Positions 4,841 through 59,037 of a stretch of 64,000 nt of DNA are shown here, piece after piece. The notes under the pieces are model-generated. The model was given only the letters and a program-made list of their open reading frames with translations. It ran no database searches and was not told the DNA's origin. This DNA comes from Plasmodiophora brassicae (Eukaryota; Endomyxa; Phytomyxea; Plasmodiophorida; Plasmodiophoridae). Position 1 is the stretch's first letter. Each line of letters begins with the position of its first letter. The DNA lies in the NCBI GenBank assembly GCA_039704465.1, contig JASFAU010000006.1:248001-312000 (forward strand). The letters are read 5' to 3'. Both the position numbers and the translations under genes were made by a program.

Positions 4841-5441
4841 GACGATAGTGAAATGGCGCTATCTATTTCTGTTGGGTCGGGGTCGGAGGCTTCCCGCCGC
4901 GGCCGAGCAGAGGGTGCCGTCCTCAAGGTTGGCCTCACGTGGCTCGGAACAGCTCCCTGCTCCGCTCCTGGTCCCGCGCAGGCTCTGACGTCTGAGACAC
5001 GAGGGCTCGAGCTATTTGCTGGCTGCCACAAAGTGTCTATTGCAATCTTTTGCCGAAATACAGCAAATGGGCCAAACACGCCTGGCCACATGGTCCAATA
5101 TAATGGCCCCTGCCCACATGGTCATTGCCTGCTGCTGTTCGCTGCTTGGTGCTTCGCCATGTATGTAGCAGAGTCGGCCACCTGGTTGCGCGTCTGCACT
5201 TTGGTGCAAGGTTTGACTGACGATCTTACCGGTGGCAACAGTCCTCGTTGTTCGTCACGAGATCCATTCTTCTCGAAATCAATCTACACATCACGCGTTG
5301 CTCCGAGTTGTTGCGTGCTCGACGTTGACGCCGTCCTCAAGCGCCGGAACCGAGATGATGTCCCCGCCAGAAGAAGTTCAGCCTGGACGAAAGGGTCATT
5401 CCGTGTTTCGAGGTCTACAGCTTGGGAATAATCATGAGCGA
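4841..5441. other. Intergenic before the transposon nest
   Basis: About 600 bases between the secreted-protein gene and the left end of the nested transposons. Open frames here show no recognisable family. A short in-frame EVYSLGIIMSE at about 5416-5448 resembles a kinase subdomain but has no kinase context on either side. Confidence 0.4.
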
Positions 5442-5512
5442 GGCGACTGCCACGGGAGTCCAAATGGCAGCAAGGAAGAATATCACGTGGCAGGAACGTT
5501 GCTGCCACTTAC

Positions 5513-5637
5513 ATCGCGATCCGACTTGGTTACTGTCACGTCTACGAAATGGTTGGTATGTCGTTCAAGTCTTATTGCGATACGACATACCAACGATTTC
5601 GCATACGTGACAGTACCCAGGTCGGATCGCGATGTAC
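5513..5637. repeat. Imperfect long palindrome (hairpin)
   Basis: Arms of about 54 bases face each other around a ~16-base centre. The left arm, beginning ACATCGCGATCCGAC and ending TTGGTATGTCGT, is matched on the opposite strand by the right arm ending GTCGGATCGCGATGT with only a few mismatches. Transcripts could fold into a stable hairpin. It lies in the left part of the outer inverted-repeat element and is best explained as part of that foldback structure. Confidence 0.7.
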
Positions 5638-6112
5638 CAGCCCGGATCTCAAGTACCAAAGGGACCTTGCTGCCAGCCATGAAGACGTTTGAACAGTACT
5701 GCGGCCGATAACGACCACGACGACGGCACTGATGGCAACGACAAACAACAGAACCAGTGGCTGCGGCTGACAACAGCGACGACGGCGCCGAAGGCGCCGC
5801 GGTCGACAACGCCCACGACGGCGACACCCACGACGGCGACACCCCACCACAACAACAGCGAATGCCTCGTATTAGTCCGCGTCCCACTCCCGCAACACGC
5901 TGTCCGCCCCGCAGCAACTCTTGCTGCTAGGGGTCGGCGCGGTTTGGTTTGGTTTGAACCGGTGTTTTGGATGGCCGAACCGAACTAAACCAAACCGAAC
6001 TATATCTAAGAGCTACAAACCGGAACCAAACCGAACCGGGGCTCCGAAACCGAAACCGAAACTAACAAACCATGGTTTACTGCAGTCACGACAGGATGGG
6101 ACGCAATGGTCC

Positions 6113-6307
6113 CTAATCTAACTCCTTCAGAAGAAGGTCGATGACATCGTCATTATCGGCGAGGTCACGTTGCTGCCTGGCGTCCAGCTTGTCCATCCTT
6201 TCGCGAAACGCTGCGTTGAGGTCGTTTGGAACCTCAGTCTTGAGCTGTCGGAAGAGGTCCAGCCACGACCGACAACACATCTCTGCTTTAAACATTGGAC
6301 TCGCCAA
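6113..6307 (-). pseudogene. Possible C-terminal remnant of the hAT transposase
   Basis: A 64-residue open frame near the left end of the hAT, in the orientation of the transposase. It is helical and charged (WLDLFRQLKTEVPNDLNAAF, then DNDDVIDLLLKELD) and ends with a natural stop close to the terminal repeats, where a transposase C-terminus would lie. It shows no diagnostic hAT dimerisation motif, so the assignment rests on position only. Confidence 0.3.
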
Positions 6308-6338
6308 TGACTCGCGTCCATCGTAGGCGCGTCCGCCT

Positions 6339-6748
6339 TATTTTGCGACCCTGTCTTCGAAGATCAGCGCAACATTCGATGGATGGTCGAATCCCAGGTT
6401 GCAGGGCTTGTATCCTCTCACATGCCACTGGATAGACACTTACCGTGGTCTTCTTCTGACTTGCCTTCTTGATTTTGCTTACATCGATCCTGGGAAAGGG
6501 GCGGGTAAACGGAGCCGTTATCGTTCACCAACGAAAGAATCTTGCCATCGATTTGGAACTCTGACAGTCGTTCACAAATCGCAGTGCCAATCCGTTTACC
6601 CGCCCCTTTCCCAGGATCGATGTAAGCAAAATCAAGAAGGCAAGTCAGAAGAAGACCACGGTAAGTGTCTATCCAGTGGCATGTGAGACCTGGGATTCGA
6701 CCATCCATCGAATGTTGCGCTGATCTTCGAAGACAGGGTCGCAAAATA
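6339..6748. repeat. Large inverted duplication inside the hAT transposase
   Basis: Arms 6339-6513 and 6591-6748 are near-perfect inverted copies separated by a 77-base spacer. Both contain the transposase segment with FDGWS and HWIDTYRG. The left arm retains 16 bases (about 6393-6408) that the right arm lacks. The right arm and the spacer are in transposase orientation, the left arm is antisense. Without the 16 bases the right-arm reading frame shifts and stops. The structure would fold into a ~160 bp hairpin as RNA. Confidence 0.85.
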
Positions 6749-7246
6749 TTCGATCAACATGGCACGAAGAATGAAATACAGTTTAAGAATCCCCCGCTTG
6801 ACAGTGCGGGCTGACTTCGGTTCGAATCCAGGACAGAGTGTGCGAGAGTACTCGCGGAACGATTCGTCTTCCGATAGAGTATGAACGTCTCCACGACGGA
6901 CGATATACTTCACGACAGCCGCATCGTTTGTCGCCACGCGATGCGACGGCAACGTTGTCGACGTGATGAGAGTCTGACGAGATGTACTGGTCTTTACACC
7001 ATCCTCGAGGACACTGTGCTTCTGCTGCAGATGTTTCAAAATCGTGCCAGTCGACGTCGACATGGACCAAGTCAGGGCACAATGCTTACATTTGCGCCTC
7101 GTCCCATCATTCGATTCGCACCAATGGCTTTGATGCCAATTTCTCCTGTGGGAGCGAGCGACGACGCTTCCGCGATTGAACGACGGTGCCTGATTCGACA
7201 ACAGAAGCGACAACGGTGGCGCTTTGGATTGCTTCGGAGCTGCCAC
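6514..7246 (-). pseudogene. Truncated hAT transposase with BED zinc finger
   Basis: Minus-strand frame of a hAT transposase. A BED-type zinc finger is present near the N-terminus: C-x2-C in RRKCKHCALTW, then STGTILKHLQQKH supplying the two histidines. Next comes a helical region (FREYSRTLCPGFEPKSAR), then the catalytic-core start ISATFDGWSNP. A 16-base loss shifts the frame just after this, but the continuation HWIDTYRGLLLTCLLDFAY and IDGKILSLVNDNGS is readable in another frame through the spacer. Beyond that the DNA becomes an inverted copy, so the catalytic Glu and the C-terminal dimerisation region are missing. Inactive as it stands. Confidence 0.8.
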
Positions 7247-7799
7247 GAGCAGCGGAAGAATCGGTCAGGGCGGTCCCAGAGCGAATGCTTGGGGGAATAA
7301 ACTCGACACCAGTCTCAGACGATGACGACAGATCGTGGTCGCTGACGTTCGCTCCATCTAGGCGATGACCAGGCATGACAGACACGAGAACAGAACCTCC
7401 TATATACGCTTACAACGGCTTCGAACGCGATACAAAGACCGTGGTCGGTGCGCTGCGGGAGCGTGGACAGTTCGGTGACTGCGCGCGCCGCACGGGTTCC
7501 TGATTACTAGCGCATCTGTCATATATAGAGTCACCCAGTGCAAACCACGGTTCAAACCGGTTCCACCGGAGCCAAACCGGTTTTGTGCTGACCTCGAACC
7601 AAACTACAGTATTTGCTTCTAATAAGGTTTCCTGTAATAAGCCCCGAACCCTGAATTCGGTGGCTTATGACCCCAAACCCCATTTTCGAGGCATACCCGG
7701 GGTCTTAATAAGAGACACAGGGCTAAATTTAGAGGTTTGGGGTCTTATTATAAACTTCCACACAACGTTTTGCTACTTATTGCTGCACGGACCGAGGTG

Positions 7800-8144
7800 A
7801 TGCCGCAGCGCAAGCTCATTGTGCATATTGTCGAAGGGTGTTGTGCTGCCTCTGTGCTAATGTCATCGATGCTGGAAGAGCTCCGTGAGCTATCTGAGCT
7901 GCTGAAGGATGATATTATCACACCTTCGGAGTTCGATGATATGAAACGAGCGCTGATCACCCGCTACAAGGGATCGGGCACCACAGGTCCCAGCCACAAC
8001 ACTCAACTTGACGAATCGAATGAAGGTCAGCGAGTTTTTCCACGAACGTTCGTGAATAACTGTGCCGTAGACGTGAATGGGAAGCAAGAGGCAAGAGTCT
8101 CATCGTGTTCGTCTTCGCCAACTGTTTCCGCCAAACATTACTGA
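7800..8144 (+). CDS. Small transposon protein with SHOCT-like helical pair
   Basis: Reading frame inside the Tc1/mariner-type element; the frame is open from 7737, and the ATG at 7800 gives 114 residues. Residues ~20-55 (MLEELRELSELLKDDIITPS, then EFDDMKRALITRY) resemble the short SHOCT-type helical hairpin, whose pattern is L-x-x-L-x-x-G/D-I-I-T-x-x-E-F-x-x-x-K-x-x-L. The rest is Ser-rich and unassigned. It may be the N-terminal part of the element's transposase left by an internal deletion, or an accessory protein. No DNA-binding helix-turn-helix is obvious. Confidence 0.45.
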   Translation: MPQRKLIVHIVEGCCAASVLMSSMLEELRELSELLKDDIITPSEFDDMKRALITRYKGSGTTGPSHNTQLDESNEGQRVFPRTFVNNCAVDVNGKQEARVSSCSSSPTVSAKHY

Positions 8145-8295
8145 AATGTTGCAACCGGGTATGTATTTCGTTCACCTTGATTATTCCATGCTAATTGTCG
8201 TTGACAGTCGATGCCGGCGTGGGAAGGATGATGAAATACCTCATAGCATCGCGGCTGGATTATCAGATGGACAATGACGCTGCGTTCTCATCGAA

Positions 8296-8811
8296 ATGGT
8301 TAGGGGGAAATTCACGGCTCCCGAACGTCGCATCCTCATTACCAAATGGGTGGGTGAAGCTTGGGAGCAGTTCTGGCAAGCGGGGTACATTCGTAAGTAC
8401 TTCGAGAAGACCGGTTGCCTACTTGGGACGGTTGGTGCGAATCCCAGTAGGATCAAGATCCAGGGTCTTGATGATTACCAGTTTATCCCAACCGTCCCGT
8501 TTGTCATCAACATCGACGATGAAACACATTCCGAAAGCAGCGACGGCAGTACTGACGGCGAATTCTCTGAAGGCGACAACGATCTCGAGGACCCCAGTTC
8601 GTCAGACGACGAAGCGCCTATTCAGTCGTTACAACCGGCCAGTTTTCGTGAAGGTGACTGTGTCAAGGTCGTCGACTGTGATGGCCAACCGCTCCTCATC
8701 GGCACTGTTATTGCACCACGTGCGTCTCTATACACGGGCAGCCTGTGCCCGACACCCACATCGTGGTCGGTCGTTATCGAACAACTGCACACGACAAGTT
8801 CTCTGGGTTAG
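8296..8811 (+). pseudogene. C-terminal fragment of a pogo-like DDE transposase
   Basis: 171-residue frame in the nested element. Residues ~8-65 (ERRILITKWVGEAWEQFW, then IRKYFEKTGCLL and IKIQGLDDYQF) match the segment that follows the last catalytic acidic residue in eukaryotic DDE transposases of the Tc1/mariner-pogo type. The catalytic Asp residues themselves would lie upstream and are absent. An acidic linker follows (SESSDGSTDGEFSEGDND), then a small beta-rich tail (FREGDCVKVVDCDGQPLL) that looks like an SH3/Tudor-type barrel. I infer an internally deleted transposase. Confidence 0.6.
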
Positions 8812-9290
8812 GATCCGTTTGAAGAACCAATTGGCGTCGGAGGATACCATGCCGTCCCTGTGAATCGTGCGTACCTGTGCGACAAATAAATGTGCCGTTT
8901 CTTGTTGTTCGGGTTAACCGGGACCAAACTGTGGTTGAATTTCGCGAATAACTCCACGTATAAAGTGTGCTTCTGATAAGACCCCAAGCACTGAAACCAC
9001 ACAAAAATATTTCACAATAAGACCCCAAACCCTCAAAGTGCTCTATGACCCCGAACCCCGATTATTTCAGTTCGGGGCTTATTAGAAGCAAATACTGTAA
9101 ACCAAACCAAACCAACTGGGTCCCCCTGGAACCAAAACCGCGCAGTTTCGGTTTGGTTCACGGTTTCTGGTTCGAAACCAAACCGCGCCGACCCCTACTT
9201 GCTGCCACGGGAAACGACGGGGCAGCCGGCAGGAACGTTCCTGCCCTGGGCTTTTTCCTTGCTGCCACTTGGAATCCCGTGGCAGTAGCC

Positions 9291-9589
9291 ACTCCAATAT
9301 TGTGCCCAGACAGAAGAGATGTTCGGGCAGGGTGGTGCCTCTCAGAACGTATCATACCGTGATCAGAACGGAGGAAAGTACAGGAGTGATGATGTGGCGA
9401 TGCCGATATGTACGACGATGGCAGAATAACTGTGATTGGTCATGTCAGCAACGTTCCGGAAGGTACAGTTGGTTGACGGTTCTCGAACAGATATTAACTG
9501 GTGGCCGCATTCGAGATCGACCGCCCGTGCTCGCTGGGTCTGCAGTATCTCGCGGGCGCTGGTAGCAGCCGTGGACCTGCCCCCCGTAC
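9291..9589. other. Upstream region of the TKL kinase gene
   Basis: About 300 bases between the right end of the transposon nest and the kinase start codon. No gene seen. It presumably includes the kinase promoter, so the transposons sit immediately upstream of it. Confidence 0.4.
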
Positions 9590-12500
9590 ATGGGCAACCA
9601 TAAGAAGAGCAGCCGGGGCTCTGAGAGTAACGGCGGCACGATCAGCCATTGCGGGTGGCTGACCAAACAAGGCGGCGCGCGAGGTGGCTTCAAGAATTGG
9701 AAGAAGCGATGGTTCGAGATCAAACGCGACTGCATCTTCTATTACAAAGCGCGACCGGTTGCCGGCGCCGAAGATGAGCAACCCGTCCTAGGCGTCCTGC
9801 CGTTGTCAGGCGCCGCCGTGTTTGCCCACGACGCCACCACGGCCGCTGACGACAAAGTCAAAGCCGTCTGCTACGAGTGCAAACGTACATTCAACATGAT
9901 CTACAAGCGCCAGAAGTGCTCGATATGCTCCGAGTCGTTCTGCAAAGACTGTGCGTCTCTGAAGGTGGCCGTCCCCTCGTTCGGCTTCGACAAGCCCGTC
10001 AAGGTATGATCTACTGACGCAACCACCATCGCGTTATCTGACTCTGTCCATCCGATGCTATGCTAGGTTTGTCGGCGGTGCTATAATTCGGTCGTTGGCA
10101 GCCAGGCGACCGTGAAGGATATAGGCCAAGACAATGCCAAGAAGGCGATTTTAAGCCGGATTGCAACGATCAGCGGGGATCGGCAATTCGCGTTCCTCAT
10201 CCATACGCCCGATCGTGAATTGCTCGTACACGCCGATACCGCTGAGGAGTACGAGGAATGGGTCAGCGCCATTCGCAGCGCCATTGCGAGGCAGACGCTT
10301 GTCGCCGAGATTGCAAAGCCCGTTTCGCAGCGCGAGCACTGGGAGATTGACTATTCGCAGTTGACGTTCCTGACCAAAATCGGCGACGGCGCGTTCGGCG
10401 AGGTCTTCAAAGGCCGCCTCTGGGGCACCGACGTCGCTATCAAGAAGCTGAAGGATTCCGAAGTCGACGTACGTTTCGATTCCGAAACGTCGAGTACCTG
10501 GTACTGATGCGCCGTGCGAAGGACAAAGTTCTGGCCGACCTAAAGAACGAGGTTGCCATCCTTTCCCAGTTACGCCACCCAAACGTCGTCCTGTATATTG
10601 GCGCGTGTACTGTCCCGCCGAACGTGTGCATTGTCACGGAATGGTGCGACCGAGGATCGCTGTACGATATCATCTACAAGCAGAAGGCAATTATTGATAC
10701 GCGCAAGATCATCGACATCGCGACAGGGCTGGCGCAAGGCATGTCGTACCTACACAGCCTGGAGCGGAGTATCATCCACAGGGACCTCAAGAGTCACAAG
10801 TCAGTGCCACTGGGGGGACGCTCCTGGCTCTGTTGTATAACGTCTGCTGCTGCAGTGTGTTGCTCGATCAGAACTTTACAGTGAAGATCGCCGACTTCGG
10901 CCTGAGTCATGTGAGGGAGCTGGCCGAGAAGTCGCCACACGCCGACCCGTCTGCGGAGACTGATGAAGCTGGAGGCAAGTATGGCGTCTTCGGCACGCCT
11001 GAGTGGATGGCACCGGAAGGTATGCGCTAACGTATCCTCGAATCTACCTGCCGTTCATATGTTCTGCAGTGATGGAAGGGTCCGCATATACGAACAAGAT
11101 CGACATCTACTCTTTCGGGGTCGTCTTGACTGAGCTGACCGCAAGGCAGATTCCTTTACGGGATCGGTACAAGATCACATCATACGTGTACGCCGACCGA
11201 TGTCTCTGTTGACGCGCTGCGGCATGCACTGAATGGTGCTGCTTAGGGACGTCTTTGAAGCCGTTCTGGAAGATGGTGCTCGCCCCACCATTCCAGGTTC
11301 TACATCGCCCTAGGACGCCAGGTCGTGCCAGATTAACAGTCGTGCCGCATAGATTGGATCGGACCAACGTTAACGGAGCTGATTAACGACTGTTTCAACG
11401 TACTGCCGTCGAAGCGGCCCACCTTTATGGATATCATCGCCCGCCTGACGCACATGTTCCACAAATCGTCCAAGACAATCAGCAAGGAGTTTGACGTACC
11501 GCGCCTGACGTACATGCTGGAGAACAGCCGGCAGACCATGCAGGTAGTGGCAGCAAGGGTATGGAACGACGCAACGGTTGCTGACATGCATGGAACCCAG
11601 GAGCTGGCCGCTCGTGAGCTGGCACAAATGAAGCCGTCATGCGAGCCCTGTGGGCAATGCGGCAGCACCCAATCGTCACTGTCGGCACTTGACGACGACG
11701 TCAAGCTTATGTTCGTCGAGAAACTGGTCTGCGGCCGACACGACGAAGTGAGAACTGTCGTTCGAGCTGACTTCTGACCTCGACAGGCCATACTGTTAAG
11801 CATCGGGCCACCAAAGGTGGCCAACCAGTGCTGTGCTGCCCTGGTGGCGTTGCTGACATGCGCCCGGGATACGACGTTTCGCTCGGCATCAACCGCAGTC
11901 ATTCTAAAGGTGACGTCGTTTGTTAAACATCTTCACGGCGGAACTCTGAATCGCAACAGGAGCTGGGCCTTGCCAAACTTCTCGGGTACTGCGAGAGCCC
12001 CGATGAAGAGCTCAAGGCCAGCGCGAAGAAACTAGCGATTGCCCTGACACCAGACCTGATGACCATTGGGAAGGACGCTGTCAATGAGCTCGACAGGAAA
12101 CTGGCCTCGAAACTGGAATCCATTGTGACTGAAGAGATGAGCAGGTATGCTCGTCTCAGCTATGCGTTTGTCGTTGACTAACCGGCGGCGTACTGCAGCC
12201 TGTCTGGTCAGCTAACGCACGTCCAGTCCCTATTGGACTCCAAACGTGCGCTTCTGAACAACCTGCAGAAGACCTCGCTTCCGGGTCGTGAGCACCGGCT
12301 GAAGAAGCGTATACGCCGTCAGGGCAGGATATTGTGATCGTGGGCTGACGTAATGCAAACAGCGCCGTCAAACGCACAACGGATATCGAATTCGCCTACT
12401 ACGGAAGAGCAAGCCCCCATTCTCCAAATAGTGGCCGGCCAGATCATCAACATGTCGTTCGCGGCGCCAGACCTGACGTCAATACCGAGGCCGAGTCGGC

Positions 12501-15305: not shown

Positions 15306-17120
15306 TTATAACGAGCTCGAGACCGGATTCAGGGTCCTATGTACATAGTTATAACTAGGGCATCTCGACTGGTCATATGTTAACGCAGCTTCAGTTTGCA
15401 GGCGGTTCAGAGCAATGGCGTCCGGAGTCAACATTGCGCTCAGTCCTGTCGAGATGACCAGGAACCACGACTGGACCAGGTAATGAAGCGCATGCCGGAT
15501 GGTCGCCATCGAGTCCACGTAATCGAGGCTGTGAATGAAGTTCATGAAATCGCGAAGGCGAGACCAAGCGGATCCATGATGGTTTCGTCGAGGAAAAATC
15601 GACCCAAAGGCACAGGCAGCCGTAGACCAGAGGCGACGTTGGGGAGCCGCGCCATGGCCCAACATTGCTGTCCGGCGTGCGCGCCGCGGTTGTAGAACCG
15701 ACCTGGATTGATCGACGACCCGTCGAACACGGCGTTGAAGCAGTCCTCGAAGATCTGCACAACGTTCAGCGTCTGGCGATCGATGTTGGATACGAACGGA
15801 GATCGGTGACCGCGCTCCATCCTGCGGAACAAGGTACATCTTCCGCGGGAACATGGAGTACTGCGCTCGGGTTTCCGCTTGAGATGTGCCCACACCGCCT
15901 CCGCCTCCAGCAGCAATATTAACGTGGCGTTTCCGTCAGCCTCATCGATCTCCTGCCACATGCTGATGAAACACGCCTGTCGCACCGTCAGGTTGGCGAT
16001 GAACTCGACGTGGTGTACGACGGGAACACGATCCGCGACCATCAGGCGACAGAAGAGGATTCTTGACGTCCTCCTTCTTGACCTGACCGTACTTGCGAAG
16101 GGCATCGGGCAGAACAACGATGGACTTCAGCACCTTGCCTTTCACGAACGTGGCCCGGACGGCCGCGTTAAGGTTGCCAATGAGCGCAAAGCGGGCGGGC
16201 GCCGCCAGCTCGCGTCCACGATCCCGCATGCGCTGCGACACGGTGCCGTTGTAGCGCGAGCGCGCGCAGTCCATCAGCGATGACGGCCAGAACGTTCGCA
16301 AGTATCGCCGGACCTCCAGAACGTGATCGCCGGCAGACGTCATCTTCATCATCGAGCGCACGCCCACCATCACGGAGTCGTCCAGTTCATCGTCAAGTGC
16401 CTCCAGGACAGCGAGGGCGGACGAAGGAGGTAGAAGCACCGGACGGCGGTGCTCGCCGAACTGGTTGCAGTAATCGGTGACCTCGTCCAGCAGATCCGCT
16501 ACGCAAGCTCTGAACGCGGCCGATACCGCCCTGGAACAGTTCTGCTTGAATTGCGAATGCGTCCAACGGGGGCCGGCAGAGATCAAGATCATTGGGTTGT
16601 TCGCGATTGGCGAGTAGTCGACTTGCTCCAGGAGGGAACGTGGCAACTGCATCACGGATCGCGACGTCTTCTCGTCGTCACGCTGCACCCGGAGGTCGTG
16701 CAGCGAGCTTCCCGTATGAGAATGACGAGTGCCATACTTGCCGAACCTTGGCAACAGGTGAAAGACTGCAAACGACTTTGCTTTCTGTGGTAGAAATTCT
16801 TGCAGCCATGTACCGAACGACGAGCAGATCGCTTGCAACGAGTCCACATCATAGGTGGAGCGCAGACGCGGACGACCCGCATGAGCGTCCGCTACATCGG
16901 CGATGCTGCGTTGGCAAGCGATGCTGTGGCCACGTACACAGCCGTTCTCATCCACGCATATGGACGAGTACGATGAAGTTGATGAAGTGGAAAGTGGATC
17001 CATCAGTATCGTGGACCCTGTTCCTGGCGGGCTGTTTCGGGTGCCGGGACCTGCTTCTGCGGCTTCCTTGCCACGCTCGCCCGTCGTTAACGACAGCAGC
17101 ATTCCCCAGAAGCATGTCAA
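15306..17120 (-). CDS. Unknown multi-exon protein
   Basis: Conserved-looking but unrecognised. A first exon of about 330 codons ends with FALIGNLNAAVRATF and LPDALRKYGQ. A phase-0 intron (donor GTCAAG near 16077, acceptor ACAG near 15978) then joins it to ACFISMWQEIDEADGNATL. Two more frame changes follow near 15840 and 15590 and lead to blocks including LNVVQIFEDCFNAVFDG and FMNFIHSLDYVDSMATI before the stop at 15306. The protein is mainly helical, without signal peptide or membrane segments. The Ser-rich N-terminus (STSSTSSYSSI) is probably disordered. Exact splice sites in the second half are not settled. It is head-adjacent to EMG1 on the same strand. Confidence 0.5.
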
Positions 17121-17262
17121 CTCATTGCGATCAGGCGCAACGCGATGTGGGGCACTGGGACGGCAGCTATTGCTATTGCAGGACTAATCGGAGAGCAAAT
17201 TCAGTATATGCCAACGGAAATGTGTTCCATTGCTCTCTGCAAATGACGCTCCCGTGATTACG

Positions 17263-17598
17263 TCACGATGGTCCAGGGCTCCTGTGCGGTTGTTGCTGGG
17301 CGATCTGCTGTAGTAGCTGGGCGATCTGCTGTTGCAGCTGGGAGATCTGCTGTTGCAGCTGGGAGATCTGCTCTTGTTGCTGGGCGATCTGCTCTTGTTG
17401 CTGGGCGATCTGCTCTTGTTGGCGGCGCACAACCTGCCTCAGCTCGTCGTTCTCTCGCCGTAGATCTGTGCAACGCGATGTGGACGTCAGTCCTGCTTTC
17501 AGCGGGGCACATCCGCACGGGGATAAGCAGCATGCCGAGCATGCATGCAGCCGAACCATTGTGTACAATAGAACCGATCGAGCAATATCTACCATCAC
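17263..17598 (-). CDS. Duplicated small coiled-coil protein, copy A
   Basis: 111 residues. The first ~50 (TMVRLHACSACCLSPCGCAP, then LKAGLTSTSRCTDLRREN) contain six cysteines and are nearly identical to copy B. The rest is a low-complexity coiled coil built from heptad-like repeats of QQEQIAQ and QLQQQIS, ending QQPHRSPGPS. The repeat tract is encoded by tandem CTGCTGTTGCAGCTGGGAGAT-type units on the opposite strand. No membrane segment. The function is unknown; conservation of the N-terminus against divergence of the coil argues that the coding frame is real. Confidence 0.5.
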   Translation of the reverse strand: MMVDIARSVLLYTMVRLHACSACCLSPCGCAPLKAGLTSTSRCTDLRRENDELRQVVRRQQEQIAQQQEQIAQQQEQISQLQQQISQLQQQIAQLLQQIAQQQPHRSPGPS

Positions 17599-17690
17599 GT
17601 ACCTTCCGGCTGTACGCCGTACGACGGCGCTTCAACGCCCCTCAGGTTGAGGCGAGATATGCCTTCAGGACGGTTCGACATAATTTGTTG

Positions 17691-17876
17691 CTATGAATTC
17701 CATAGCCGTGGCTCGGCGACGTCGGGCATCCTCCACGCGCATGGGACCATGACACGACTGCCTACCGCGTCGCGACGTGGGCAGCACCTGCAGTCATCGC
17801 AGTGGATCCAGGCATCCTCAAGTCCGCAACTGCAGTACCGCGTCGCGACGTGAGCGGCCTCGTCGACGGGCAGCAT
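17691..17876 (-). CDS. Small Cys-rich frame in duplicated unit A
   Basis: 61-residue frame with a compact cysteine cluster (CSCGLEDAWIHCDDCRCCPRR) that could bind zinc. A near-copy of the cluster, with Thr for Ile, lies in unit B at about 18860-18790 on the same strand. It may be an upstream exon of the coiled-coil gene downstream of it, but no convincing splice was found. Low confidence as a separate gene. Confidence 0.3.
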   Translation of the reverse strand: MLPVDEAAHVATRYCSCGLEDAWIHCDDCRCCPRRDAVGSRVMVPCAWRMPDVAEPRLWNS

Positions 17877-18317
17877 CCGACTCTGGACATGCTAACCCAC
17901 TTTCACCATCGTCTGCTGCCTCTCGAGTCCTCTGTTGACGAATCTGTATACTGGGCGAGGATGTCGTTCATGGTCCAGCAAGGGTCCACGAAAACCGTTC
18001 GTGAGCCTGCGTGCTTTCGATACGTCCACAATAGTTGACGCGACAACTTCGTGCATTAGAAAACGCATTGTGGCCTGTCCCGCGCCCTTGCGACGCAGGC
18101 GCCGGGATATTCACCGAGGACGTACTTCAGCTATGGTGCCACGATCGCCTGTCGTTAACGACAGCAGCGTTTTCTAAAAGCACGTCAACTCATTGCGATC
18201 AGGCGCAACGCGATGTGGGGCACTGGGACGGCAGTGATTGCAATTGGAGGACTAATCGGAGAGCCAACGACAGTACTGTACTGCATGGCTGTGTGAAACT
18301 GGCAGTCCTTTAATACT

Positions 18318-18620
18318 TCAGGTTGCCCCTGACGACCCGTTGGCGATCTGCTGTTCCAGATCCGTGATCTTCTGTTGTTGCTTGGAAATTATCTCTTGCT
18401 GGCTGTGGACGACCTGCCTCAGCTCTTCGATGAGCTCTTCTTGGCGGCGCACAGCCTGCCTCAGCTCGTCGATCTCTCGTCGTAGGTCTGTGCAACGCGA
18501 TGTGGACGTTAGTCCTGCTTTCAGCGGGGCACACCCGCACGGGGATAAGCAGCATGCCGAGCATGCATGCAGCCGAACCATTGTGTACGATAGAACCGAT
18601 CGATCAATATCTAACATCAC
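18318..18620 (-). CDS. Duplicated small coiled-coil protein, copy B
   Basis: 100-residue paralog of the protein at 17263-17598. The Cys-containing N-terminus is almost the same; the coil differs (ELRQAVRRQEELIEELRQ, then SKQQQKITDLEQQIANG) and is less repetitive, closer to an ordinary heptad coil. It probably preserves the ancestral sequence before copy A expanded its Gln-rich repeats. Function unknown. Confidence 0.5.
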   Translation of the reverse strand: MMLDIDRSVLSYTMVRLHACSACCLSPCGCAPLKAGLTSTSRCTDLRREIDELRQAVRRQEELIEELRQVVHSQQEIISKQQQKITDLEQQIANGSSGAT

Positions 18621-18865
18621 GCACCGTCTGCATCTTGCGGCTGTACGCCGTACAAAGGAGCTTCAATGCCAGTGAGGTTGAGGCGCGATACGCCTTCTGG
18701 GCGACGAGACAATGAATTCTAAAACCGTGGCTCGGCGACGTCGGGCATCCTCCACGCGCATGGGGCCCAAGACACGACTGCTTACCGCGTCGCCACGTGG
18801 GCAGCACCTGCAGTCATCGCAGTGGGTCCAGGCATCCTCAAGTCCGCAACTGCAGTGGTCGGTGC

Positions 18866-34704: not shown

Positions 34705-34893
34705 AATCAGGACACTGTTGCGACCTCGAGTTCGCAGTCCGTGGCGGAGTCCGTGGCGGAGTTCGTTGCTGACTGACCTATCTGGCTTTGCGGACATTCC
34801 GGACATTCTCACGGTGCTGCCATGGCAGTTCACGGACTACTAAAGTCATTCTGTTATTGTCCTGCTTGAGTTCACGTGTCCCGTGCTTCAATT
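34705..34893 (+). repeat. 5' LTR (189 bp)
   Basis: Starts AATCAGGACACTGTT and ends GTGCTTCAATT. It contains a GTGGCGGAGTCC/GTGGCGGAGTTC near-repeat and a GGACATTCC GGACATTC repeat in the middle. It must contain the element's promoter, though no TATA box is obvious. Confidence 0.95.
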
Positions 34894-34917
34894 GGTTTTG
34901 GGCCCATCCCAAGCCTA

Positions 34918-35038
34918 CCTCTGTCCCTGTTTCTGTCCCTGTTCCTGTCCGTGTTCCTGTCCCTGTTCCTGTCCTTGTTCCAGTCCCTGTTCCTGTCCCT
35001 GTTCCTGTCCCTGTTCCTGTCACTGTTCCTGTTCCAGC
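34918..35038 (+). repeat. 12-bp tandem repeat in the element's leader
   Basis: About ten imperfect copies of CTGTTCCTGTCC between the 5' LTR and the Gag start codon. Imperfect members (CTGTTTCTGTCC, GTGTTCCTGTCC) suggest gradual expansion. Located in the untranslated leader, where packaging or translation signals usually lie. Confidence 0.8.
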
Positions 35039-35114
35039 GTCCGAAGCCCCTCGTGATCCAGCTCGCGTCGTGACCGCCCGCGTTCCGTCTCCGTCTCTCT
35101 CGTGATCGCCCGCA

Positions 35115-36065
35115 ATGGCGGAAGACTGGAACCAGCTCGTTACAGGCCTTACCTCCCAGATCCAGATCCTTCAACAACAGCAACAGCAGCAGCAGCAGCT
35201 ACTGCAGCAACAGCACGACCAACTGCTGCAACAGCAACAACAACTGACGCAGGCCCAGGCCTCCCCACAACAGCGAACGGTCTCACAGCATCATGCTCCT
35301 GAGCCCAAGGTCAAGCTTCCGCCCATGTACAACGGCGGCCGGGGCGAACTTCGCGGCTTTCTGAACCAGATCAAGCTGGTTATCACTCAGCGGCCCAACA
35401 CCTACGCGGCCGACGCTCAGAAGGTCGCGCTGGTGGGCCAGCTGTTGGGTGGGGACGCCCTAAAGTGGTTTAACCCACTGTTCGAGCGGAATAACGACCT
35501 GATGAAGGACTTCAGCGCCTTCGTCTCCGCAATCAAGAGCAGATTCGGGGACCCGAACCTCGCAGAGACCGCGGCCCGCAAGCTCCAGCACCTGCGTCAG
35601 GGCAGAGGCACTGTCGCCCGCTTCGCCACAGAATTCCAGAATCTGGCGGCGGACGCTGGGTTCAACGACTCAGCCTGCCGACACATGTTCCGCGCCGGCC
35701 TGGCCAGGGACGTGCAGTTCCTGCTGCTGTCCCTACCCGTCGCCGAGACGCTTGACGAGCTTGTCATACAGGCAATTCGGTGCGACAACCGCCTGGCCGA
35801 GCACCGATCGGCCACCGCCCTCGTTCCTGTCCCTGCTGTCTCCGCCGCCGCAGTGCCGTCCGCTCCTTCCCCAGCCCCGGCCGCCGCGGTTGGGGATCCT
35901 ATGGTTATCGACGCCGCGATCGGCGGTGGGCCCCGCGCGCCCTTAACCCAAGACGAGAAAGATCGCCGTCGTCGCGAAGGCCTGTGCCTCTACTGCGGGG
36001 TGGCTGGTCATGTCGCAGTGTCCTGCCCTGTGCGTCCGCAGGGAAACGCCTCCCGGCGTGGCTGA
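35115..36065 (+). CDS. gag: Gag of the LTR retrotransposon
   Basis: 316 residues. The N-terminus has a Gln-rich coil (QLLQQQHDQLLQQQQQLTQA) encoded by CAG/CAA runs. A retrotransposon-Gag capsid domain follows (KVKLPPMYNGGRGELRGFL, ALKWFNPLFE, FVSAIKSRFGDPN, FATEFQNLAADAGF). A Pro/Ala linker leads to one CCHC zinc knuckle (CLYCGVAGHVAVSC). The capsid pattern resembles Ty3-like rather than Ty1-like Gag. The Pol frame overlaps the 3' end in the -1 register, so Pol is probably made by frameshifting or reinitiation. Confidence 0.9.
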   Translation: MAEDWNQLVTGLTSQIQILQQQQQQQQQLLQQQHDQLLQQQQQLTQAQASPQQRTVSQHHAPEPKVKLPPMYNGGRGELRGFLNQIKLVITQRPNTYAADAQKVALVGQLLGGDALKWFNPLFERNNDLMKDFSAFVSAIKSRFGDPNLAETAARKLQHLRQGRGTVARFATEFQNLAADAGFNDSACRHMFRAGLARDVQFLLLSLPVAETLDELVIQAIRCDNRLAEHRSATALVPVPAVSAAAVPSAPSPAPAAAVGDPMVIDAAIGGGPRAPLTQDEKDRRRREGLCLYCGVAGHVAVSCPVRPQGNASRRG

Positions 36066-39000
36066 AATACCGGTCGGTCGCCACGTCTACCAATACACCT
36101 GTTCCATCATGTAACCCCGACCACTTCTCTCCCGAGCCAAGTATGATTTCCGCGTCCACCAACCTCGTCGAGCACTTGGACCGTGTCCTAAGCATAGACG
36201 TGTCCCTTCAACTCGACAATGGCAAGACTGTACAGACGAAGGCACTTATCGACTCAGGAGCAACCAACGACTTCATACACTCCGACTTCGCCCGCGCTCA
36301 CAACGTTCCGCTCACCAAGAAACCCGCACCGGTAGATCTGGAGGTAATTGACGGGCGGCGGCTACCGAAGGTGGCGCTGGAAACGGCCCCTGTCCGCCTC
36401 AGCATCGGCAACCACTCCGAATCGATCGTGTTGAACGTAATCGACTCCCCACGATTCCCGATTATCCTCGGCATGACCTGGCTCTCGAGGCACAACCCGA
36501 ACATTAACTGGACACGCCGAACGATGGAGATTACTCGTGTCACTCAGGACGCCGCGCGCGAACAGAGCGAACCCAAGGAAGCCATCACAGCCCTAACCTT
36601 GCACGACACTGACGTATTCCCTCAGCAACCAGACCCACCACCTCAAGACCTCTCGCCACCCCCACGACACGAACGGCGGTCGAGGGCCCGTGTTGACAGC
36701 GGCAAGGCACCATACGCAGTCCCACTTCCCGGTGATTGGAACCAAGCCCAATGCCTCAAGCGGTGGCACCACCGACTCGGCCATCGTAACCTGCGGGACG
36801 TCATCCTGATGGCAAACCACGACCTCACCGAATCCATGGAGATTCTGGCGCAGAAGGTTGACAAGTTCTGTGAAGGGTGCACTGTCGCGAAAGCCAAGGA
36901 ACGCCCTTTCCCGTCGGAGTCCAAAGACAAGGAGTGGAATGTTCTCGAGAGAATCGACGTCGACGAATGCGGTCCGCTTCCCGTTGCGTCACTCAATGGG
37001 GAACGGTACTTTATCACGTTCACAGAATTCGCAACCAGGATGAAATTCACATTCCTGCTGCACCACAAGAACGAGGCGCTGACCAAGTTCAAAGAGCTCA
37101 AGGCACGAATTGAGAACCGCCTGGAGAAATCCATTAAGATCCTGTTCGGTGACAACGATGGAGTATTCATCAACGACGAGTTCAAGGCGCTCCTGCAGGA
37201 ATGCGGGATCGAATGGAGATCAACGGTGGAGTATTCTTCTAAGCAGAACGGCGTCTCCGAACGTGGCCACCTGACGCTCATGGACTCCGGCCGCGCAATG
37301 CTCGTACACGCAAGGCTTCCCAAGCAGTTCTGGGGACCCGCAATCCTGACTGCCAGCCACGTCCATAATCTCTGCCCCCACCCTCGCGATCCCACGACAA
37401 CGCCCCATGAAAAGCTGTCGCGTTCGAAACCCGACATCCGCTATCTCAGAACGTTCGGGTGCGACGCATATGGCTACGTCCCGTCCAGCCAGAGAACGAA
37501 GCTGGATCCACGCGCTGTGAAAGGCATCTTCATCGGATACGCGGACCACCAGAAAGGGTACGTTCTCTATCACCCGTCGTCCGGCCTAATCAAGGTGTAC
37601 CGCAGCGTGACGTTCAACGAAGACAGCTTCGGCGGCCGCAGTGCAGATGACGCACTCGCTGATCCCGACGAGCCCGAGTCCGAATACGACGGCAACTACG
37701 TCCCCTCCGATGACGAATCCGCCGTCGAGGGGGCGCAGCTTGCAGGCCCCAGTGAGGATCCGCGGTCTCCCATTCAACGGGCTCGGCGTACCCCCCGCAA
37801 GCCAGACCGTCTTGGAGACCCCGTTCATCACGCCTGGATCGCGTCACTGCAACCTACCCACGACGCCCCCATCCACCACATGTGGATAGGTTCCACACAT
37901 CAATGCGAGGACGACGACGGCGCCACACCCAGCGCAGAGGACCCCGACACTCCAACCACATACGAAGACGCTATGGCGAGTCCCGAGGCAGAGTTCTGGA
38001 CCAAGGCGATGACCGATGAATTGAACAGCCTGACAGAGCACAAAACATGGGAAGCCGTCGAGCGACTACCCGTTGGGGCCCGTCCCATCGGATGTCGCTG
38101 GGTGTACAAGCGCAAAATCATGAAGACAAGTCAGGTTCCGCCAGACTCCACCTGGGTGCTTCGCCACGACCCCGATGGTGTCACCACCCACCGGTATAAG
38201 GCTCGCCTGTGTATACTTGGCTACAAACAGCGCGAAGGCGTCGACTACACCAAGACGTACGCGCCAGTTATTCGCAGCGACATCCTCCGCCTAGTACTAG
38301 CCCTATCCGTCCACGACAAGGAGATTATCGCAGAGCAGATGGACGTGATGACGGCATTTCTGAACGCCTACCTCACCGAAGAGATCTACATGGACTCTCC
38401 GAAGGGGTCGAAGGCCAGAACCCGCTTCGTCAAGCTCCTTCGATCGATCTACGGCCTGAAACAGGCACCAAGAGAATGGTTCAAGGTCATCGACGCCTTC
38501 CTCGTCAACGAATGTGGGTTCCAACGAGCCAAGTCCGCGTCGTGCTTGTACTTCAAACGTAGTCCAACCGGAAGGCTCGTCGTCGTTGGGGTCTACGTCG
38601 ACGATATCCCCATCGTCGGACATCCCGAACTTGTACACGAAACCAAGTCATCCCTCTCAAGGAGATTCAAGATGTCTGACATGGGTGAACTTCAATCCGT
38701 CATCGGCCTCGACGTGGATAGACAAGGTGGATCGGTGTTTCTGTCACAGGAACGCTACACGAAGACCATCATCGACACCTACGGCATGGCTGAATCGCGC
38801 CCCGTCTCGACACCGGCAGACGCGAACTTGAAGCTATCCACATCACTGTGCCCGCAGAACCAAGCTGACCGTGAACTGGTCGCGTTAGAAGGCCAGCGCA
38901 TCAACTACCGAGCGGCAGTAGGCCACCTAATGTGGCTACTACACACTCGCCCAGACATCGCCTACGCTGTGAACGAGGTCTCACGTTATGTTCAAGACCC

Positions 39001-39679
39001 AGGGCCAGCCCATTTCGTCGCGCTGAAGCGGATCTTCAGGTACCTCAACGGCACGCGCAACTACGGGCTCCTGTTCGAAGGAGGTGGGGAAGCAACCACA
39101 CCATTCCTAGTCGGCTATTCCGACTCTGACTGGGCAGGAGACGTCGACTCACGTCGGTCAACTTCTGGATACGTGTTCCTTCTGAATGGCTGTCCGGTTT
39201 CGTTCCGTTCTAAGAAGCAGACCACAGTCGCGTTATCATCGTGCGAGGCGGAGACGGTGGCATCAACACTCGCGGCAACAGAAGGCGTATGGTTGCGCAA
39301 TGTGCTGGACGAACTAGGTTTTCCACAAGCTCAGCCTACGCTCCTAAACGTGGACAACCAGGGGGCGATCGCGTTTGCCAACAGTGAAATCAACCACAGC
39401 AAAATGAAACACCTCGCGCTCAAGGATCACTTCGTCAGAGAACTGGTGGCATCCAACCTGATCAAGGTGCACTATGTTCGCTCAAGTGACAATCTAGCCG
39501 ATATCTTCACGAAGCCGCTGGGGAAGGTCAAGTTTGTCGAATTCCGGCAGGCTCTCAAGTGCGTACCTCGTCCTGACCGAATCCCGAACTCTTCGGTCGA
39601 GGGGGCGAATCAGGACACTGTTGCGACCTCGAGTTCGCAGTCCGTGGCGGAGTCCGTGGCGGAGTTCGTTGCTGACTGA
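36063..39679 (+). CDS. pol: Pol polyprotein (PR-IN-RT-RH)
   Basis: One uninterrupted frame; it is open back to 35780 within Gag, in the -1 register, and the first useful ATG outside Gag is near 36144. The aspartic protease has ALIDSGATNDFIHSDFA and later ILGMTWLSRHNP, a Ty3/chromovirus-type signature. The integrase begins with an HHCC finger (HHRLGH...CEGC); the core keeps Asp in DVDECG, Asp in FGDND and Glu in NGVSERGH. Copia-type reverse transcriptase has RLVLALSVHDKEIIAEQMDV, LKQAPREWF and the YVDD box; the RNase H part has GYSDSDWAGDVDSRRSTSGY. The stop codon lies 72 bases inside the 3' LTR, so the last ~20 residues are LTR-encoded. All domains look complete. Confidence 0.93.
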
Positions 39680-39796
39680 CCTATCTGGCTTTGCGGACAT
39701 TCCGGACATTCTCACGGTGCTGCCATGGCAGTTCACGGACTACTAAAGTCATTCTGTTATTGTCCTGCTTGAGTTCACGTGTCCCGTGCTTCAATT
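39608..39796 (+). repeat. 3' LTR (189 bp)
   Basis: Read as identical to the 5' LTR over its full length. It follows a GAGGGGGCG polypurine stretch and includes the Pol stop codon. Confidence 0.95.
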
Positions 39797-55729: not shown

Positions 55730-55930
55730 ATCTCACCGGTGCAAACAGCTCTCTGGGCACCTCTGGTTCCAGAACGCCGATTCACCGGCGGGGGTCGCCC
55801 CCTCCTGTACCACCTCACTCAATACGCGTCTGCGCTGGGTATCTGTCCAGAACAGCGGCTTCGTCGAGATCGTAGAAGGCGATGATGGTATATTGGGGTT
55901 GAGTTCCGTACCCATGGCCGTCGTGGTCGT

Positions 55931-57319
55931 TCAGCCGGCGCGCAGGAGCTGGCGTCCTACGTCGCTGCGCAGGAAGCGCACGTACGATGAGGGCTCGAGG
56001 ATGCGTTTGATTTCGGCGGCGGCCTCGTCGAAGACGGTGACGGGGAGGGCGCGGGCCGACTCCATCGCCGCCAGGAGCCCATCGCGGCACCGGCCGGACA
56101 GGTTGACCGCCAGCGGCGCGTCCGGTTTGACGTGTGCGTCGCAGATGTCGTTGGCGTGATCCCGCATCGCGTCGTCGCCGCCCGACCTCGCCGCCTCGGT
56201 CTCGCCGTCGTGCGAGGACATGGACAACGCGACGTTGTCGCCGGACGTCGTCCAGACGTTCGCCTTCTTGTCTCTCCCGAACTTCTTCTTGAACGCGTTT
56301 ACCGCCAGCAGGAACTGGAGGTTCTCTACGGCGAACTCCTGGCACAGGTACTCGGCGAACGCTGCGATGGCGGCCGGGTCCGACGTCAGGAAGTCGTCGA
56401 GGCGCATGGACGCATCCGCCGTTTGCTCGCTGAACCTGGTGTACGACAGGACGAGCGGGATCCAGACGCTGACGACGTAGTCGGCCAGGATCAGGACCCA
56501 GTAGAGGACCACGAGGACCGGGTACGTCGTGGCGTCGTACGCGGCGACGTCAGGCGTGAACCAAAACACGAAGTAGATCATCCCGAACGCGAAACTGGAC
56601 AGCAGTTCGCGCTTGATGAAGAACCTGTCAACGCAGACGCGAAGCCGGAACGAGTAGTACCCGAGGGCGGCGACCCAGACCACATACCAGACCTGACGGC
56701 CCGCGTTGAGTGCCGGGTTCACCTGGGTGCAATCGCTGAGCCAGGTCCCCGTCGCGACTGATGCGACCAGGAACGCGATCAGGAGCAGCGCAACGACAAT
56801 CCAGAATGTGACGATGAACCGGTTCGACGTTATCCATTGGTGCTCGAGGTACCACGTATCGGACGTCGATAGGGCCGGGGTGGCGACCGCGTCCTGGACC
56901 TTGCTGGTCGATTGCCGCGGTTGCGACGGCTGTGCTTGCTTCTGTCCAGCTAGTCGAACCTGCTGCTGGTACGTCCTGGATAACTTTGCGGACGACGACA
57001 ACAGCTTGGCGCGTATGATGCGGCATTGCCAGAAGAAGACGGCGCTGCGTAGCGTGTACCCGATGGTGCCAATGGTTCCCAGCGTATTCTCGATGCAGTA
57101 CGCCGGCAGGCACGGCAGAGGGCTCAGGTAGCCAATGATGGAGGTCTCCAGATGTATCGTCAGCACGATCAGCGTCACGGCCGCTGACACTGGAAACCGG
57201 GCAGCGATCGGCTGGCGGTGCCGCCGGTACAGGAACCAGATCTGCCCGACGACGGCCACGATCACGTGCGCAATGCCCAGTACCCACAACGATGCGGTCG
57301 TCGCGGGCGACAGCTCCAT
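55931..57319 (-). CDS. 7TM-RGS protein, copy 1
   Basis: 462 residues, single exon. Seven hydrophobic segments in the first ~300 residues (e.g. LWVLGIAHVIVAVVGQIWFL, AAVTLIVLTIHLETSIIGYL, FIVTFWIVVALLLIAFLVAS, FAFGMIYFVFWFTPDVAAY) are followed by a C-terminal RGS domain: MRLDDFLTSDPAAIAAFAEY, LCQEFAVENLQFLLAVNAFK and, after an insert, FDEAAAEIKRILEPSSYVRF. This receptor-like 7TM plus cytoplasmic RGS plan is known from plant AtRGS1 and several protists, where it keeps G-alpha inactive. The insert inside the RGS domain (about 50 residues, Ser/Asp-rich) is shared with the neighbouring copy. Tandem with copy 2, same strand. Confidence 0.85.
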   Translation of the reverse strand: MELSPATTASLWVLGIAHVIVAVVGQIWFLYRRHRQPIAARFPVSAAVTLIVLTIHLETSIIGYLSPLPCLPAYCIENTLGTIGTIGYTLRSAVFFWQCRIIRAKLLSSSAKLSRTYQQQVRLAGQKQAQPSQPRQSTSKVQDAVATPALSTSDTWYLEHQWITSNRFIVTFWIVVALLLIAFLVASVATGTWLSDCTQVNPALNAGRQVWYVVWVAALGYYSFRLRVCVDRFFIKRELLSSFAFGMIYFVFWFTPDVAAYDATTYPVLVVLYWVLILADYVVSVWIPLVLSYTRFSEQTADASMRLDDFLTSDPAAIAAFAEYLCQEFAVENLQFLLAVNAFKKKFGRDKKANVWTTSGDNVALSMSSHDGETEAARSGGDDAMRDHANDICDAHVKPDAPLAVNLSGRCRDGLLAAMESARALPVTVFDEAAAEIKRILEPSSYVRFLRSDVGRQLLRAG

Positions 57320-57511
57320 CAGTCAACCGGAACGCATAATGAAGTAGTACACGAGCGCGAACCTTAATAAGAGGTACCAGAGACGCGGTCGGTGAGGTTC
57401 GCCTGCTTCGTTTGTAAGCCCCTTTCCGCCGCTCCCTCCACCGGGCCTCCGCGTTGGGCATTCCGGGTGAACGCTTAGGAGATGGGGGGTATAACATGCA
57501 ACGTGTATGGT
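57320..57511. other. Spacer between tandem 7TM-RGS genes
   Basis: 192 bases with the copy-1 promoter and copy-2 3' end. No ORF of note. Such a short spacer suggests compact regulation. Confidence 0.4.
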
Positions 57512-58906: not shown

Positions 58907-59037
58907 CGGATGAATGTGGTAACTCGTAGTACACGCCCGCGATCTTAAGGGTTAGAAAAGGTGATCGCTGTGTGTGGCCTCTAATACGCTTGCAATGCCC
59001 GAGGTGGCAGGGGTGGATTATATCGACATAGTTTTGC

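What the first reader, a model, noticed from the sequence alone, without database searches (positions are those of the whole stretch)
5442..9290. Three DNA transposons nested like dolls
A ~570 bp inverted-repeat element contains a hAT (perfect 8-bp duplication CTTGCTGC) that contains a Tc1/mariner-type element (TA duplication, perfect 20-bp ends). Insertion order is readable directly. The hAT target lies in a TTGCTGCCAC motif repeated in the outer element, which hints at target preference or reuse of inverted-repeat ends.
Basis: seen in the sequence. Interest (0 to 1): 0.75.

Follow-up and report, generated by a model that had tools for sequence, protein, structure and literature searches.

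The report
Three nested jumping-gene relics in clubroot
Three different DNA transposons, all worn down and apparently unable to move by themselves, landed one inside another in the genome of what is most likely the clubroot parasite; it is a clean, readable example of an ordinary process.

Summary
A pogo-like (Tc1/mariner superfamily) element (7605-9099) sits in a hAT (5928-9197), which sits in an older inverted-repeat element (about 5436-9292). Empty sites exist in the same genome, most likely Plasmodiophora brassicae: two hAT copies (C1, C15) have one TA where the pogo sits here, and two relatives of the outer element (C13:573k, C9:1080k) run through the hAT target with one, slightly diverged, copy of its 8 bp. 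Each element's ends also occur alone. The outer element can be named: its terminal or subterminal sequence lies just upstream of a MULE (Mutator-like) transposase at C9, C5 and C16, with the ends themselves only at C9. All three copies here are deletion derivatives. The proposed hAT target preference is not supported: none of 5 other copies with a recognisable duplication resembles CTTGCTGC. Both fit repair with inverted filler. Verdict: real and ordered by nesting, but ordinary.

The parts
5436..9292 (.). Outer element: deletion derivative related to MULEs (about 571 bp without the hAT)
   Evidence: inverted ends; relatives at 12 other places by my grouping; terminal or subterminal sequence beside a MULE transposase at C9, C5 and C16
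5436..5509 (+). Left end of the outer element, GAGCGAGGCGACTGCCACGGGAGTCC..., with GTGGCAGCAAGG-type subterminal motifs
5510..5636 (.). 127-bp hairpin: two inverted copies of a subterminal stretch (M) that is single-copy in C5 (L086) and C16 (L087)
5711..5927 (.). ACGACG-rich body shared with C13:573k and two C4 places at about 70% identity
5920..5927 (+). hAT target-site duplication, left copy CTTGCTGC
   Evidence: single copy in relatives L080 (CCTGCTGT) and L088 (CCTGCTGC)
5928..9197 (-). hAT element, internally deleted; transposase remnant on the minus strand
   Evidence: 14 other places by my grouping; C1 copy 97.8-99.0% identical by piece
5928..5950 (+). hAT left terminal inverted repeat TAGGGGTCGGCGCGGTTTGGTTT
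6339..6513 (.). 175-bp inverted filler in place of about 1071 bp present in the C1 copy; pairs with 6591-6748
6591..6748 (.). Direct arm of the palindrome; lacks 17 nt that the filler and the C15 copy have
7605..9099 (+). pogo-like element with its two TA duplications (7605-7606, 9098-9099); internal deletion at about 8121/8122
   Evidence: empty TA in the C1 and C15 hAT copies
9175..9197 (-). hAT right terminal inverted repeat
9198..9205 (+). hAT target-site duplication, right copy CTTGCTGC
9206..9292 (-). Right end of the outer element, ending CCCGTGGCAGTAGCCACTC(C)

Best explanation
Three unrelated cut-and-paste DNA transposons inserted in turn. Oldest is a MULE-related copy that lacks a transposase. 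A hAT then inserted into it and duplicated CTTGCTGC. A pogo-like element then inserted at a TA near the hAT's right end. Each is an internal-deletion derivative, so probably none can move alone. The two palindromes inside the nest arose when a gap or break in an element was repaired by copying a nearby stretch in reverse orientation (inverted filler). Shown: insertion order, target duplications of the two inner elements, empty sites, independent occurrence, deletions, inverted filler. Inferred: which transposases moved them, and the exact repair route.
For: Empty pogo site in the C1 and C15 hAT copies: AAACTAAACC against AAAC-TA[element]TA-AACC. Empty hAT site in outer-family relatives: C13:573k (score 210; best of 200 composition shuffles 44; target 6 of 8 identical, no gap across it) and C9:1080k (102 against 40; target 7 of 8). 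A pogo copy at C14, 98.7% identical (1468 of 1488), shares the internal deletion and has its own TA empty site in the C11 paralogue. None of the 14 other hAT places coincides with any of the 20 other pogo places, by my grouping. A longer hAT relative has the hAT dimerisation domain at 1e-14; a longer pogo relative has DDE_1 at 1.5e-4. MULE transposase: C5 open frame, PF21056 1.2e-20 and PF10551 4.5e-7, with broken relatives at C16 and C9; at all three the outer family's sequence lies on its upstream side. hAT filler: 175 of 175 identical to the C15 copy, with about 1-2 bp of overlap at its junctions, read by eye.
Against: No target duplication was found for the outer element, and its left half is rearranged (end - M inverted - M - body), so its original edges are unproven. 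The MULE link is in pieces: C9 has the ends, body and transposase relics but only a weak trace of M; C5 has only an inner piece of the motif array plus body and M; C16 has body and M only. The DDE_1 match (21.8 bits) is just under Pfam's cut-off (22.0), and the zinc-finger and CENP-B_N matches are under theirs. C14 has a MULE end about 550 bp from its pogo copy, so the two families lie near each other twice. A weak MULE-like end at C16:236.9k lies 0.8 kb from a hAT fragment, which by strand is outside it.
Confidence: 0.9

Rival explanations
1. One composite element with three sets of ends that moves as a unit.
For: All three ends lie concentrically; pogo and MULE ends are also near each other at C14.
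Against: Each element's ends occur without the others at other places, and empty sites exist for both inner insertions.
Confidence: 0.02
2. The outer unit is not a transposon copy but a host repeat or segmental duplication that happens to have inverted arms.
For: No target duplication. C11 and C14 share about 550 bp beyond the short end array, and the two C4 places are a 2.8-kb paralogous pair.
Against: Ends of the form GAGYGAGGCTACTGCCACGGG (0-2 mismatches) stand next to flanks that by eye are unrelated at C14, C4, C2 and the window; both ends occur together in a short unit at C2; MULE transposase sequence lies inside at C9, C5 and C16.
Confidence: 0.1
3. The hairpin 5510-5636 is a fourth nested transposon, a TA-flanked foldback MITE.
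For: It begins with TA and ends with TA, and its 55-nt arms are 91% complementary.
Against: The same stretch is single-copy, in the same element family, at C5 and C16, and the homology with C5 runs on past the right TA. The hairpin search at E up to 10 found only itself, though its first look passed on one candidate. The same stretch is also inverted-duplicated in C13:620k.
Confidence: 0.05
4. The palindromes are kept because hairpin RNA from them silences related transposons, as Mu killer does in maize.
For: The only inverted pairs in the 64-kb window (60 bp or more, 75% identity or more, E up to 1e-6, within 6 kb) are the three in this nest. Some other hAT, pogo and MULE copies also carry inverted duplications. 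P. brassicae is reported to have argonautes and a protein resembling Dicer-like 1 and Drosha, but no detected RNA-dependent RNA polymerase (PMC4471660, one passage).
Against: No expression or small-RNA data were seen here. The loci compared were picked because they hold transposons, so their palindrome rate has no proper control, and 10 of 11 fetched blocks with long pogo copies show no inverted pair at these settings. Repair alone explains the structures.
Confidence: 0.06

Closest known systems
hAT superfamily (Ac/Ds, hobo, Tam3; these names and their general traits are recalled)
   Same: 8-bp target duplication, TAGGG-type ends, subterminal repeats; hAT dimerisation domain (PF05699) in a longer relative
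   Different: This copy lacks about 1071 bp and carries an inverted filler; its coding region is broken
pogo-like elements of the Tc1/mariner superfamily (subgroup naming recalled)
   Same: TA duplication; longer relatives have CENP-B-type and DDE_1 matches, both under Pfam's cut-offs
   Different: This copy is a 1.5-kb deletion derivative of elements about 3.1 kb long; relatives also have an N-terminal C2H2 finger match
MULE / Mutator-like elements
   Same: Terminal or subterminal sequence of the window's outer element lies upstream of MULE transposase sequence at three other loci
   Different: The copy here has no transposase, no detectable target duplication and a rearranged left half
Mu killer of maize (PMC3440606; start of abstract in the search listing)
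   Same: Inverted duplication of part of a DNA transposon that could be read into hairpin RNA
   Different: No evidence of transcription or silencing here

Membership tests
hAT | 8-bp target-site duplication | tested here: met
   8 of 8 in the window; of the other copies examined, 8 of 8 in two, 7 of 8 in one, 7 bp in one, 6 bp in one, none recognisable in two with both ends
hAT | hAT transposase with C-terminal dimerisation region | tested here: met
   PF05699 at 1e-14 in the C3 relative; the window's own 74-aa remnant gave no Pfam hit
Tc1/mariner | TA target duplication | tested here: met
   TA on both sides here and single TA in two hAT relatives
pogo-like | DDE_1 transposase with CENP-B-type DNA-binding domain | tested here: inconclusive
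   In longer relatives DDE_1 21.8 bits (cut-off 22.0) and CENP-B_N 17.2 (cut-off 21.2); the public P. brassicae relative P0003 is listed with PF03184
MULE | MULE transposase in fuller relatives | tested here: met
   L090 ORF (C5): PF21056 74.2 bits (cut-off 27.2), PF10551 30.7 (cut-off 27.6); broken relatives at C16 and C9. Ends and transposase are together only at C9
MULE | 8-11 bp target-site duplication (feature recalled) | tested here: not met
   No convincing duplication outside 5436 and 9292 or around the short copies, judged by eye; hence filed as MULE-derived, not as an intact MULE

The most novel reading that the evidence does not exclude
In a parasite reported to have argonautes and a Dicer/Drosha-like protein but no detected RNA-dependent RNA polymerase, inverted duplications inside transposon copies, such as the two palindromes in this nest, would be the main source of double-stranded RNA against transposons: a set of Mu-killer-like loci serving the hAT, MULE and pogo-like families.
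Probability: 0.05. Interest if true: 0.65.

Novelty: new member of a known kind. Interest (0 to 1): 0.3.

Why it matters
It is a clean nest in a poorly studied eukaryotic group (Rhizaria), with empty sites for both inner insertions in the same genome. It orders three transposon families in time at one locus, shows non-autonomous hAT, pogo-like and MULE-derived copies side by side, and gives two clear cases of palindromes formed inside transposons. A specialist would find it useful but not surprising.

Tried and rejected
Target preference of the hAT: compared the duplications of other copies; none of 5 recognisable ones is similar, two copies with both ends showed none, and 6 places were not fetched. 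Fourth nested MITE for the hairpin: dropped after C5 and C16 showed the stretch as a native, single-copy part of the family. Divergence clock: hAT against C1 (97.8-99.0%) and pogo against C14 (98.7%) are too alike to order by identity; order rests on nesting. Outer target duplication: none found by eye. Public-protein searches: the hAT frame found 2 proteins, both labelled P. brassicae; the pogo frame found 2, one labelled P. brassicae and one unnamed; the MULE frame found nothing at E up to 0.001. Literature: no paper in the held library has 'Mutator-like', 'hAT' and 'Plasmodiophora' together; 3 papers hold both 'Plasmodiophora brassicae' and 'MULE', none opened. Passages of PMC6823432 and PMC4471660 were seen; other papers only as listings. 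I make no claim that these families are unpublished; repeat libraries of this genome were built in both papers. One genome search was left unused.

Full report
What it is in. The genome that holds the window has 25,344,181 bases in 21 contigs. A hAT open frame from contig C3 matches a Plasmodiophora brassicae protein at 100% identity over 72% of the query, and the published e3 genome is about 25 Mb in 20 nuclear contigs plus one mitochondrial (PMC6823432, start of abstract and passages). The organism is therefore most likely P. brassicae, the clubroot protist. The strain is not known; the longest contig among the loci seen (C1, 2,115,091) is not the 2,120,846 given for e3.

The observation. 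An exact 8-bp duplication at a set place would occur by chance about once in 65,000 (arithmetic).

Independent occurrence. The hAT part gives 37 matches, at 14 places besides the window by my grouping. The pogo part gives 39 matches, at 20 places besides the window by my grouping. These searches report lower bounds. The outer ends are found at C13:620k, C11:1190k, C4:1209k, C14 and C2, and sequence of the outer body or motif array also at C13:573k, two places on C9, C5, C16:745k and two more on C4. No other hAT place coincides with a pogo place. Two near misses: C14 has a MULE end about 550 bp from its pogo copy, and C16 has a weak MULE-like end (2 mismatches; in the same search the reversed control pattern gave 3 matches at up to 3 mismatches, against 5 real ones) 0.8 kb from a hAT fragment that by strand lies outside it.

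Empty sites. The C1 and C15 hAT copies read AAACTAAACC where the window has the pogo between two TAs. Two relatives of the outer element run straight through the hAT target: C13:573k reads CCTGCTGT (6 of 8 identical; alignment score 210, best of 200 shuffles 44) and C9:1080k reads CCTGCTGC (7 of 8; score 102, best of 200 shuffles 40). The shuffles kept base composition only. Together these settle the order: outer, then hAT, then pogo.

The outer element. The family's parts, from the end inward, are GAGYGAGGCTACTGCCACGGG, an array of GTGGCAGCAAGG-type motifs, an ACGACG-rich body, and a stretch I call M. Next to these lies MULE transposase sequence at three places. At C5, an inner piece of the array, body and M are followed by an open frame with PF21056 at 1.2e-20 and PF10551 at 4.5e-7, both above their cut-offs. 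At C16, body and M are followed by a broken relative of it. At C9, the end, array and body are followed by a broken relative, with only a weak trace of M. In all three the transposase reads away from the terminal side. So the complete chain is pieced together from three loci; ends and transposase are seen together only at C9. The window copy has ends, M and body but no transposase, and is best read as a MULE deletion derivative. No target duplication was found, and M lies inverted next to itself in the window, so its original borders are not certain.

Palindromes. (a) The hAT copy lacks about 1071 bp present in the C1 copy and has in that place 175 bp that are the reverse complement of a stretch 77 bp further in. 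The filler is identical (175 of 175) to the C15 copy, while the window's own direct arm lacks 17 nt of it. Overlaps of 1-2 bases at the junctions, read by eye, fit template switching during gap repair. (b) The 127-bp hairpin of the outer element consists of two inverted copies of M (scores 92 and 60 against C5; best of 200 shuffles 32 and 26). M is single at C5 and C16 and is also inverted-duplicated, in a different arrangement, at C13:620k. In the window, the only inverted pairs at the settings (60 bp or more, 75% or more, E up to 1e-6, within 6 kb) are three, all in this nest: the outer ends and these two palindromes. Other fetched stretches carry inverted pairs too (C6:237k pogo, C6:750k hAT, C3:556k hAT in hAT, C4:1209k, C2:1689k, C15:812k, C13:620k), while 10 of 11 blocks with long pogo copies carry none; the eleventh, C2, has one beside the element. 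Loci L078-L080 and L085 were not in that call; L078 and L079 do hold inverted pairs and L080 none of 18 nt or more. These stretches were chosen for their transposons, so this is no measured enrichment.

Target preference. Recognisable duplications of other hAT copies are CGCTCAAC (C7), ACGGTGCC (C3:1.80M), GGGTTCG (C1, 7 bp), CTCCCC[A/G]G (C3:557k, 7 of 8) and TGGCCG (C3:0.57M, 6 bp). None resembles CTTGCTGC. Two further copies with both ends (C6:748k, C3:556570-557880) show none, and 6 places were not fetched. The position of this insertion in a TTGCTGCCAC motif is best taken as chance in an element that holds many copies of it.

Verdict. The finding is real and its order is now shown rather than inferred, but nested non-autonomous DNA transposons with filler-repaired deletions are ordinary. 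The most novel reading left open is that such palindromes feed transposon silencing; the evidence for it is circumstantial.

Noticed in passing
window 34705-39796: A complete-looking LTR retrotransposon with two identical 189-bp direct repeats, a 1307-aa open frame with a strong RVT_2 match and an integrase-core match under its cut-off, and a gag frame; possible CCCCA duplication at its edges. Identical repeats suggest a young insertion.
   Followed up: partly
window 55929-58907 and 17069-18856: Direct duplications of about 1.4 kb (76% identical) and 0.8 kb (78%), perhaps duplicated genes.
   Followed up: no
G000:C3:556570-557880 (L020, L022): A hAT copy apparently inserted in inverted orientation inside another copy of the same family, with duplication CTCCCC[A/G]G.
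   Followed up: partly
G000:C4:1209459-1210496 (L005) and C2:1689639-1690770: Palindromes of about 1 kb beside transposon sequence; the C4 one has similar open frames in both arms.
   Followed up: no
G000:C3:1801961-1804937: hAT copy whose right end is duplicated in tandem, with the 8-bp duplication ACGGTGCC outside the second end.
   Followed up: partly
G000:C6:237335-240476: A longer pogo-like copy of the same subfamily (95-97% identical pieces, with an inverted duplication) lies about 15 kb from the one in the window.
   Followed up: no
window 9566-10884: Open frames with PH, FYVE and protein-kinase matches begin about 270 bp from the right edge of the nest.
   Followed up: no
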